Shown: positions 38,347 to 44,014 of the stretch, piece by piece
Layout: each line of letters opens with the position of its first letter
Position numbering within the stretch: position 1 is the first letter of the stretch
Source of the DNA: Treponema sp.
GTDB lineage: Bacteria; Spirochaetota; Spirochaetia; Treponematales; Treponemataceae
DNA: 64,000 nucleotides
Reading direction: 5' to 3'
Assembly: GCA_016286365.1 (NCBI GenBank)
Contig: JAEESN010000002.1
Coordinates: forward strand, 1 to 64,000
The notes under the pieces: model-generated
What the model was told of the DNA's origin: nothing
Seen by the model: the letters and a program-made list of their open reading frames with translations, nothing else
The model's database searches: none
Program-made: the position numbers and the translations under genes

Positions 38347-38718
38347 ATGGGAACATCAGTTACAATTATTATTTTAATTATTATAGTTATTCTGGCGGTG
38401 ATTAGTTCTATAAAAAGAATCAGACACGGATCTGCATGCTGCGGCACTCACGATTCCGGGCCAAAAAAGATTCGCGTGCACGATAAAAATAAATCACACT
38501 ACCCTTACACTTACACGCTCACTGTGGATGGAATGCACTGCTCAAACTGTGCTACGCACGTAGAAAATGCACTTAACACAAAGGAAGGAGTTTGGGCCCG
38601 CGTCGATTTGGGAAATAAAACAGTGCTGGTGCGTACAAAAAGCCCAATGGAATGGCATGATTTTTCCGCAGCAATTAAGGAAGCTGGATACACATTGATT
38701 TCCCAGGCTTCGGATTAG
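38347..38718 (+). CDS. membrane-anchored heavy-metal-associated (HMA) domain protein
   Basis: YTLTVDGMHCSNCATHVENALNTKEGVWARVDLGNKTVLV. Confidence 0.85.
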   Translation: MGTSVTIIILIIIVILAVISSIKRIRHGSACCGTHDSGPKKIRVHDKNKSHYPYTYTLTVDGMHCSNCATHVENALNTKEGVWARVDLGNKTVLVRTKSPMEWHDFSAAIKEAGYTLISQASD

Positions 38719-38742
38719 TTTTCTGGTGGGGGGAAACATATT

Positions 38743-39165
38743 TTTACGGACGAAATGCACAAAAAACACATCTTTCGTCCGTAAACTTTCACACCGCAGC
38801 TTCATTTTGCAGGCTGAGATTTGCCTTAAACACAGGATTTTACGGACGAAATGTTCAAAAACTCACCTTTCGTCCGTAAACATTCACATCACAGCTTCAT
38901 TTTGCAGGCTGAGATTTGCCTTAAACACAGGATTTTACGGACGAAATGCACAAAAACTCATCTTTCGTCCGTAAACATTCACATCACTGCTTTATTTTGC
39001 AGGCTAAAATTGCCCGTAGACAACATTTCTTACGGACGAAATGCACAAAAACATACCTTTCGTCCGTAAATATCCACATCACAGCTTCATTTTGCAGGCT
39101 GAGATTTGCCTTAAACACAGAATTTTACGGACGAAATGCACAAAAACTCATCTTTCGTCCGTAAA
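38743..39165. repeat. dyad array G2: five TTTACGGACGAAA-N16/17-TTTCGTCCGTAAA modules, 95-bp period
   Basis: Left arms at 38743, 38839, 38934, 39029, 39124; conserved linker cattcacatcacagcttcattttgcaggctgagatttgccttaaacacag. Confidence 0.93.
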
Positions 39166-42094: not shown

Positions 42095-42781
42095 ATGACC
42101 CAAATCCAGAAAATCCTTTTTAAATATCAGGATAAAAAATACGGTGATTTTTCTGCAAAGCTTGTGCCAACCCTTCCACGAAAGACATTTATCGGGGTGC
42201 GCTCGCCTGTATACAAAAATATAATCAGCGAGATAAAAACTCTTCCTCCGGGCGAGCTCGAAAATTTTTTTAAAGATCTTCCGCATAAATATCACGAAGA
42301 AAACTGCTTGCACATCGCATTAATCAACAAAATCAAAGATTATGATGAATGCCTTAGAGCCCTTAAAAATTTTCTCCCATATATAAACAGCTGGGCCGTT
42401 AGTGACGGACTTAATCCGCCGGCTCTCAAAAAAAACAGACAGAAACTTCTACCCGACCTTCAAGCCTGGATGCGAGACACAGCTCCTTTTACCAAACGTG
42501 TCGGTATGCTTCTTTTAATGAAATATTTTCTGGATGATGATTTTAAACCTGAATACCTTGATCTTCCGGCGAGCATCCGGAGCACTGAATATTATGTAAA
42601 CATGATGACTGCATGGCTATTTTCCGAAGCACTTGTAAAACAGTGGGATACGGCAATCACTTTTATTCAGGATAAGAAGCTTGACACGTGGACTCACAAC
42701 AAGGCAATCCAGAAAGCTTCTGAAAGCTTTCGTGTAAGCGCGGAACATAAAGAGTATTTAAAGACGCTCAGGATATATTAA
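42095..42781 (+). CDS. DNA alkylation repair (AlkD-like) protein
   Basis: KLVPTLPRKTFIGVRSPVYKNIISEIK...FLDDDFKPEYLD; MTQIQKILFKYQ start preferred, ORF start at 41957 lies in a repeat. Confidence 0.8.
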   Translation: MTQIQKILFKYQDKKYGDFSAKLVPTLPRKTFIGVRSPVYKNIISEIKTLPPGELENFFKDLPHKYHEENCLHIALINKIKDYDECLRALKNFLPYINSWAVSDGLNPPALKKNRQKLLPDLQAWMRDTAPFTKRVGMLLLMKYFLDDDFKPEYLDLPASIRSTEYYVNMMTAWLFSEALVKQWDTAITFIQDKKLDTWTHNKAIQKASESFRVSAEHKEYLKTLRIY

Positions 42782-42791
42782 GCCCGGAAGA

Positions 42792-43000
42792 ATTACTGTT
42801 CTTCGTAAGAGAGCATGCGTTTAATATATCTTTTTTCTTCGCGGCTGAGGAAGAACAGCTTCATAAAACATTCTTCTTGTACTGATTAAATTTTCTTCAT
42901 CAACTGGAATATAAACACCAATGTAATCGTCGTCCACATTTCCAAGAAAATATGAATCTACTGTTTTTGGTTGATTTTTCTTTTCTGTTCGATTTCTTTG
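42792..43000 (-). pseudogene. frameshifted remnant of unknown protein
   Basis: Minus-strand TVDSYFLGNVDDDYIGVYIPVDEENLISTRRMFYEA(frameshift)LFFLSREEKRYIKRMLSYEEQ*. Confidence 0.5.
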
Positions 43001-43006
43001 AATTTT

Positions 43007-43186
43007 TCAGTTTGATTCGTCTGCCTTTTCTTCTGAACCTTGTCTTTTGCCATCTCTAAAAGCGTAATTCTGCATCATTTCTACAGTCATATACTGTTTC
43101 CTCCATTGCGTGTTGTGTCTGGCGTCTTCTACATAGGTGTGCAGTTTCGAGGTGTAATCATAGCCAGTATTGTTTGAAATAAAGAT
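43007..43186 (-). pseudogene. second, truncated copy of the Rpn C-terminal cassette
   Basis: FISNNTGYDYTSKLHTYVEDARHNTQWRKQYMTVEMMQNYAFRDGKRQGSEEKADESN* versus the intact gene's DARHNTQWRKQYMTVEMMQNYAFRDGMEKG... Confidence 0.85.
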
Positions 43187-43381
43187 TTATTTATTTATCT
43201 CTTTTTTAAGTTCCCGGACTTTTTCAAGAGGAAGACCAATGCATTCAGTGATAATACTTTCGGATATACCTTTTTTCAACAAATTCACAGCATCTTCTTC
43301 GGCCTTTCTGTTTGCACCTTCAATTACACCTTTCTCCATGCCATCTCTAAAAGCGTAATTCTGCATCATTTCTACGGTCAT
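43187..43381 (-). other. possible internal translation product (RpnS-like, 64 aa) nested in the Rpn gene
   Basis: minus strand TGGAGGAAACAGTATATG: GGAGG with 9-nt spacing to an in-frame ATG (MTVEMMQNYAFRDG...). Confidence 0.5.
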
Positions 43382-44014
43382 ATACTGTTTCCTCCATTGT
43401 GTGTTGTGTCTGGCGTCTTCTACGTATTTATGCAGATTTGAAGTATAATCATCACCAGTTTTGTTAGAGATAAAAAAGTCAAAAAAAGTTTTTGCCTTTT
43501 CATCTTTAATCATTTTAGCACACAGTGGAGCAATAAAAAAGAGTTTAGATGTGCGGTCTCCAAGCTCGATATTTTTATCTTCCTTACAAAGATATTTAAA
43601 ACTATATAACGGAAGCCCCAAACCAAAAATATCCTCCATGCATATAAATATGACATATGAATCTTTAAGCTTATCATACGTCTGCCCCGGCTTTAACATA
43701 TCCACATCCATCACACTCTGATAGTATCGTGCACGCTCAGGAAGATCATGCGTATTTACAACCTGAACTTCAACATCGTAAACATGATTAGAGTTCTTTA
43801 CGTAAACATCAAGCCTTATGGCTTTTGAATCGTGATCGATAATCAGTGTTTCTTCATTCGACATCTCCATATTTTCGATTTTGATGTGTAATAAAAGTTC
43901 AAGAAGATGCTTACAGGCCTCCGGGTGGGTGTGCATTACCTTGTAAAAGATAAAGTTGTTTGCAAGTGTGATGTTCTCCCATTTTTCTTCGAGTGATAAA
44001 GTTTTTTCATTCAT
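43187..44014 (-). CDS. Rpn family recombination-promoting nuclease / PD-(D/E)XK nuclease family transposase
   Basis: NNFIFYKVMHTHPEACKHLLELLLHIKIENM...RLDVYVKNSNHVYDVEVQVVNTHDLPERARYYQSVMDVDMLKPGQTYDKLKDSYVIFIC. Confidence 0.88.
   Translation of the reverse strand: MNEKTLSLEEKWENITLANNFIFYKVMHTHPEACKHLLELLLHIKIENMEMSNEETLIIDHDSKAIRLDVYVKNSNHVYDVEVQVVNTHDLPERARYYQSVMDVDMLKPGQTYDKLKDSYVIFICMEDIFGLGLPLYSFKYLCKEDKNIELGDRTSKLFFIAPLCAKMIKDEKAKTFFDFFISNKTGDDYTSNLHKYVEDARHNTQWRKQYMTVEMMQNYAFRDGMEKGVIEGANRKAEEDAVNLLKKGISESIITECIGLPLEKVRELKKEINK

What the first reader, a model, noticed from the sequence alone, without database searches (positions are those of the whole stretch)
43187..43381. Rpn nuclease gene with an internal Shine-Dalgarno and ATG: possible intragenic antitoxin
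In the intact Rpn-family gene, TGGAGGAAACAGTATATG places GGAGG 9 nt before an in-frame ATG that would yield a 64-aa C-terminal protein (MTVEMMQNYAFRDG...KKEINK). For E. coli Rpn proteins, a small C-terminal product made from an internal start has been reported to inhibit the full-length toxic nuclease in an anti-phage context. This sequence has the same layout in a spirochete.
Basis: partly seen in the sequence, partly recalled or inferred. Interest (0 to 1): 0.7.

Follow-up and report, generated by a model that had tools for sequence, protein, structure and literature searches.

The report
Nuclease gene with nested antitoxin gene
This rumen Treponema gene for an Rpn-type DNA-cutting enzyme almost certainly contains a second, smaller gene for its own C-terminal tail, with its own ribosome-binding site and probably its own promoter; this is the arrangement known from E. 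coli Rpn toxin-antitoxin genes, so it is a well-supported new example of a known kind.

Summary
Window 43187-44014 (-) is an intact 275-aa Rpn gene (TIGR01784, 118 bits) with GGAGG 9 nt before in-frame ATG 43381, giving 64 aa. Alone the site is unremarkable: 18 of 407 in-frame ATGs in this window look as good. Comparison settles it. In 124 relatives with the Met, a 5-nt or longer SD precedes it in 83 (synonymous-codon null 20.5 +/- 4.0), and Arg208 is AGG in 84 of 99, never CGN. A second nuclease subfamily reaches the same GGAGG through different codons (6 nt or more in 63 of 71; null 8.9). Tails vary in 4-aa steps, are swapped between nucleases, and occur as stand-alone downstream copies. All this matches the RpnL/RpnS gene-within-gene toxin-antitoxin of Zhong et al. 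2023: a new member of a known kind. Translation, toxicity and neutralisation were not tested. New here: evidence of selection on the nested start, the predicted nested promoter, and spare downstream tails. The window's own spare tail (43007-43186) is decayed.

The parts
43187..44014 (-). full-length Rpn nuclease (RpnL-like), 275 aa, own SD GGAGG at 44026-44022
   Evidence: (TIGR01784 118.4 bits, profile 4-273/273); dN/dS 0.06-0.11 among the three full-length paralogs over residues 1-205
43763..43810 (-). predicted catalytic residues D69 ... E82-V-Q84
   Evidence: invariant in 46 aligned homologs; correspond to RpnA D63/E82/Q84, where changes D63A, E82A and Q84K abolish activity (PMC5350276)
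43512..43541 (-). nested promoter-like element C-TTTTTT(-35, 43540-43535)-N14-TGC(43520-43518)-TAAAAT(-10, 43517-43512)
   Evidence: one of the two most constrained stretches of silent sites in the gene; matched by 116 of 130 homologs against 8.6 +/- 2.8 expected. The name 'promoter' is an inference; a plain TTGACA/TATAAT scan does not list it
43391..43395 (-). internal Shine-Dalgarno GGAGG, made by the codons of Trp207-Arg208
43187..43381 (-). nested ORF (RpnS-like), 64 aa, starts at Met212
   Evidence: predicted helices 3-36, 41-48, 52-63
43307..43330 (-). 8-residue insert GVIEGANR (two 4-aa units) in the long tail helix; the two other full-length copies in this genome carry 0 and 4 residues here
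   Evidence: 4-aa steps family-wide
43007..43186 (-). decayed downstream second copy of the hinge and tail start (homology 43183-43048), SD 43104-43100, ATG 43090, ends after 27 codons

Best explanation
This is an RpnL/RpnS gene-within-a-gene toxin-antitoxin locus. The long frame makes a PD-(D/E)XK DNA nuclease that ends in a helical oligomerisation tail. A second initiation site, GGAGG plus ATG at Met212, makes the 64-aa tail alone, probably also from a separate short mRNA started by a nested promoter about 136 nt upstream. Free tail pairs with the tail of the nuclease through the long helix and keeps the nuclease inactive. The helix length, changed in 4-residue steps, sets which tail matches which nuclease. 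The nuclease is released under some trigger, possibly phage infection. Shown here: nuclease family and intact catalytic residues, purifying selection on the nuclease, selection on the internal SD and on the upstream element, tail modularity. Inferred: translation, transcription start, inhibition, pairing specificity, trigger.
For: TIGR01784 118.4 bits over the whole profile. Met212 in 124 of 127 homologs; Arg208 codon AGG 84, AGA 15, CGN 0, against 21% AGG elsewhere. SD of 5 nt or more at Met212 in 83 of 124, null 20.5 +/- 4.0, maximum 35 in 2000 resamplings; other internal ATGs of the same genes 21 of 852. Family B: SD of 6 nt or more in 63 of 71, null 8.9 +/- 2.8; Glu229 always GAG (70 of 70); codon 228 ends in G across six amino acids. 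Phylum sample: 23 of 29, null 10.5 +/- 2.1; the E. coli rpnA control returns its known 49-aa start. Nested promoter-like element: 116 of 130 against 8.6 (A), 34 of 72 against 1.6 (B). In each family the two silent-site constraint peaks are this element and the SD. 4-aa steps: 104 of 107 (A), 47 of 54 (B). Tail profile reaches RpnA_S 7th0, E = 0.046. The C10 locus in the same genome has a truncated downstream tail copy with intact SD and ATG. Independent precedent: RpnS made and inhibitory in E. coli (PMC10327210); internal TSS in rpnB stronger than the main one (PMC10469882).
Against: No expression or toxicity data exist for this gene. The -35 of the proposed nested promoter (TTTTTT) is poor and the element is not listed by a simple sigma-70 scan. 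Nine of 124 relatives lack a 4-nt SD at the tested spacing, although four of them have GGAG 6 nt before an ATG three codons upstream. The 7th0 match is marginal and Foldseek did not list 7th0 among the first 50. No PADLOC defence family matches the gene or three neighbours tested.
Confidence: 0.8

Rival explanations
1. The tail is translated separately, but as a helper or structural subunit of the nuclease complex (as Cas11d is for type I-D Cascade), not as an inhibitor.
For: The sequence evidence shows selection for separate initiation, not the sign of the effect. Zhong et al. cite Cas11d as a nested complementary product (PMC10327210).
Against: The Rpn proteins tested by Zhong et al. (RpnA, RpnB, RpnC, RpnP2) are all counteracted by their RpnS (PMC10327210). 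The 4-aa repeat variation fits specificity matching.
Confidence: 0.13
2. The GGAGG and ATG are a by-product of a conserved protein motif (Trp-Arg-x-Gln-Tyr-Met) and are not used.
For: The motif is conserved as protein, and one such site in a window is expected by chance (18 of 407).
Against: Arg208 avoids CGN completely while other conserved Arg columns use all six codons. Family B keeps GGAGG with different amino acids and a constant wobble G. Synonymous resampling excludes it.
Confidence: 0.03
3. The locus is a decaying gene family remnant; this copy and its downstream partial copy no longer work.
For: The downstream copy in the window is frame-broken. The C19 paralog of the same family ends in the hinge.
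Against: The nuclease ORF is intact with catalytic residues, and dN/dS against paralogs is 0.06-0.10. SD, ATG and promoter-like element are all intact.
Confidence: 0.04

Closest known systems
RpnL/RpnS toxin-antitoxin of E. coli (RpnA-E, RpnP2) and C. difficile Rpn (Zhong et al. 2023, PMC10327210)
   Same: PD-(D/E)XK nuclease with D/E/Q residues; internal RBS and ATG before a short three-helix C-terminal tail; tail helix varies in 4-aa units; internal transcription start (predicted here, measured there); stand-alone tail genes downstream of some copies (rpnC, rpnE there; C10 here)
   Different: SD built from Trp-Arg (family A) or x-Glu-Val (family B) codons instead of Lys-Glu as in RpnA; tail 64 aa against 49 aa; very high copy number; no activity data here
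TIGR01784 / COG5464 Rpn family (T_den_put_tspse); Pfam PF12784 PDDEXK_2
   Same: Full-length TIGR01784 match, 118.4 bits against a cut-off of 52.1; PF12784 43.7 bits against 27.4
   Different: The models describe the long protein only and say nothing of a nested product; E. coli Rpn proteins are filed under PF04754 (PMC5350276)

Membership tests
Rpn nuclease family (TIGR01784) | profile match over curated cut-off | tested here: met
   118.4 bits against 52.1, profile 4-273 of 273
Rpn nuclease family (TIGR01784) | PD-(D/E)XK catalytic Asp, Glu, Gln | tested here: met
   D69, E82, Q84 invariant in 46 sequences; correspond to RpnA D63, E82, Q84; best fold matches are McrC nuclease chains, weak (E 0.001-0.002)
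RpnL/RpnS gene-within-gene toxin-antitoxin | internal RBS and start codon before the C-terminal domain | tested here: met
   present in window and under selection in the family
RpnL/RpnS gene-within-gene toxin-antitoxin | tail helix varies by 4-aa units starting 8-20 residues after the internal Met | tested here: met
   104 of 107 family A tails in one 4-aa register; 0/4/8-residue inserts among this genome's three full-length copies
RpnL/RpnS gene-within-gene toxin-antitoxin | tail folds like RpnA_S (7TH0) | tested here: inconclusive
   predicted three helices, pLDDT 80; profile hit to 7th0 E = 0.046; 7th0 not in the first 50 Foldseek matches
RpnL/RpnS gene-within-gene toxin-antitoxin | internal transcription start for a short mRNA | tested here: inconclusive
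   conserved promoter-like element upstream of the start; no RNA data
RpnL/RpnS gene-within-gene toxin-antitoxin | small protein is made, binds RpnL, blocks toxicity and cleavage | not testable with these tools
   needs expression, toxicity and cleavage assays
RpnL/RpnS gene-within-gene toxin-antitoxin | protection against phage | not testable with these tools
   no PADLOC match in the gene or the three neighbours tested; needs phage challenge

The most novel reading that the evidence does not exclude
The Treponema loci work as switchable cassettes. A nuclease is followed by one or more spare tails that share the hinge sequence, so recombination in the hinge replaces both the nuclease's own tail and its nested antitoxin in one step. 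This would keep toxin and antitoxin matched while changing specificity.
Probability: 0.25. Interest if true: 0.65.

Novelty: new member of a known kind. Interest (0 to 1): 0.45.

Why it matters
It indicates that the nested antitoxin start of Rpn genes is under selection well outside E. coli: in two nuclease subfamilies of one spirochete genus and, with a smaller sample, across the phylum. It adds a predicted nested promoter that can be tested directly. In this gene the SD can be removed by a silent Arg codon change, which gives a cleaner test than the amino-acid changes needed in E. coli RpnA. With relatives in 179 of 196 genus genomes, often many copies each, the system offers natural material for how tail length sets specificity.

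Tried and rejected
Chance SD: plausible for one site (18 of 407), rejected by the family test. Protein-motif by-product: rejected by codon choice. Window 42760-43030 as a known element or a second tail: no DNA match in 38 related genomes. Defence island context: no PADLOC hit for the gene, a family B paralog or three neighbours. Foldseek of the tail gave only generic helix-turn-helix matches; of the full model, weak McrC matches and many chance nucleases. Equal helix length between a gene and its downstream spare tail, as a sign of matched pairs: by eye it holds in C10, L235 and L245 but not in L113, L097 or L044, so it is not claimed. Literature search found no paper on Rpn nested starts in Treponema in the held library.

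Full report
The minus strand of 43187-44014 encodes an intact 275-aa protein, and TGGAGGAAACAGTATATG at 43396-43379 places GGAGG 9 nt before an in-frame ATG whose product is 64 aa. NCBIfam names the protein Rpn family TIGR01784 at 118.4 bits over essentially the whole profile; Pfam gives PDDEXK_2. D69, E82 and Q84 are invariant in 46 aligned homologs and correspond to RpnA D63, E82 and Q84, where D63A, E82A and Q84K abolish activity (PMC5350276). Among the three full-length copies in the genome, dN/dS over the nuclease part is 0.06-0.11, so the nuclease is maintained.

One site alone proves little. In this window 18 of 407 in-frame internal ATGs of ORFs of 200 aa or more have a 5-nt or longer SD match. 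I therefore used relatives. The protein has matches in 179 of 196 genomes of the genus; named records show mostly rumen and gut Treponema. From the fetched loci I took 130 non-identical full-length homologs.

Met212 is ATG in 124 of 127 sequences with a residue there. Arg208, which supplies AGG to the SD, is AGG in 84 and AGA in 15 of 99 and never CGN. AGG makes up 21% of Arg codons elsewhere in these genes, and other conserved Arg columns use all six codons. Column 208 has the highest silent-site bias of 265 columns, and the second highest with a bias-corrected score. With amino acids fixed and codons redrawn, a 5-nt or longer SD is expected in 20.5 +/- 4.0 genes (maximum 35 in 2000 trials) and found in 83 of 124. 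Other internal ATGs of the same genes show it in 21 of 852. The sequences are related, so the resampling figures are not strict probabilities; but the same genes use all six Arg codons at other conserved positions, so silent sites are well mixed.

A second nuclease subfamily (family B; for example L015, TIGR01784 38.8 bits, below the cut-off) shares the tails but not the nuclease sequence at the junction. It has its own internal site, as in ACGGAGGTTATCAATATG. Here the SD uses x-Glu-Val codons: Glu229 is GAG in 70 of 70, and the codon before it ends in G although the residue varies among Thr, Arg, Ala, Glu, Lys and Ser. SD of 6 nt or more: 63 of 71, null 8.9 +/- 2.8. A phylum-wide sample of 29 genes (E. 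coli rpnA included as control) shows a similar excess, 23 against 10.5 +/- 2.1, and the control returns its known start.

A second element not in the finding appeared in the silent-site scan. In both families the two constrained peaks are the SD and a stretch well upstream of it. In family A the stretch reads C-TTTTTT-N14-TGN-TAAAAT. The wobble C before the T run is present in 98% although that residue varies, and the T that opens TAAAAT is fixed whether the residue is Asp or Ala. In family B the best conserved subset reads TTGCCG, a 17-nt spacer, and an extended -10 that begins TGN-TAT. Both parts together: 116 of 130 against 8.6 +/- 2.8 expected (A), 34 of 72 against 1.6 (B). I read this as an extended -10 promoter for a short tail mRNA; in the window it is 43541-43512, its -10 starting 136 nt before the ATG. 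This is inference: the -35 is poor and a simple scan does not list it. It agrees with internal transcription starts reported inside all five E. coli rpn genes (PMC10327210) and with an internal start in rpnB stronger than the main one (PMC10469882).

The tails behave as RpnS tails do. The distance from the internal Met to the tail core changes in steps of four residues: 104 of 107 family A tails and 47 of 54 family B tails fall in one register. The three full-length copies in this genome carry 8, 4 and 0 extra residues. Half of the nuclease pairs that are at least 85% identical have tail cores under 50% identical (43 of 87 in A, 18 of 25 in B), and 50 of 160 tail cores have their nearest neighbour in the other family. 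The predicted tail is a long helix plus two short ones. A tail profile reaches RpnA_S 7th0 only marginally (E = 0.046).

Truncated second copies lie downstream of many genes. Of about 28 such tail ORFs, most keep the SD, the ATG and an open tail. In this genome the C10 copy is intact from the SD onward, and a family B copy on C19 has a broken nuclease part but an intact 77-aa small ORF. In the window the downstream copy at 43007-43186 keeps SD and ATG but ends after 27 codons. Zhong et al. describe stand-alone rpnS genes downstream of rpnC and rpnE. Two intact tails behind repeated hinge sequence would also allow tail replacement by recombination; that is the novel reading, not shown here.

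It is a new member of the known RpnL/RpnS kind. Separate translation is very likely (my estimate 0.93), the antitoxin role likely (about 0.8, by homology and precedent), and a phage-defence role unproven.

Noticed in passing
window 43512-43541 (-): Promoter-like element inside the nuclease gene, conserved at silent sites across the family; not part of the original finding.
   Followed up: yes
window 43007-43186 (-): Decayed second copy of hinge and tail start directly downstream, with its own intact SD and ATG.
   Followed up: partly
L007/L010, G000:C10:56407-56697 (-): Stand-alone downstream tail copy with intact SD, ATG and 56-aa tail, same helix length as the tail of the gene before it.
   Followed up: partly
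L013, G000:C19:14428-14671 (-): Family B gene with broken nuclease part but intact internal SD and 77-aa small ORF.
   Followed up: partly
L009, G000:C19:19474-20070 (+): Family A nuclease part that ends in the hinge and lacks a tail.
   Followed up: no
window 38742-39165: Tandem array, period 95 bases, 4.5 copies, 86% matches, after a small gene at 38347-38718.
   Followed up: no
window 42760-43030 (-): Stretch between the decayed tail copy and the next gene has no DNA match in 38 related genomes.
   Followed up: partly
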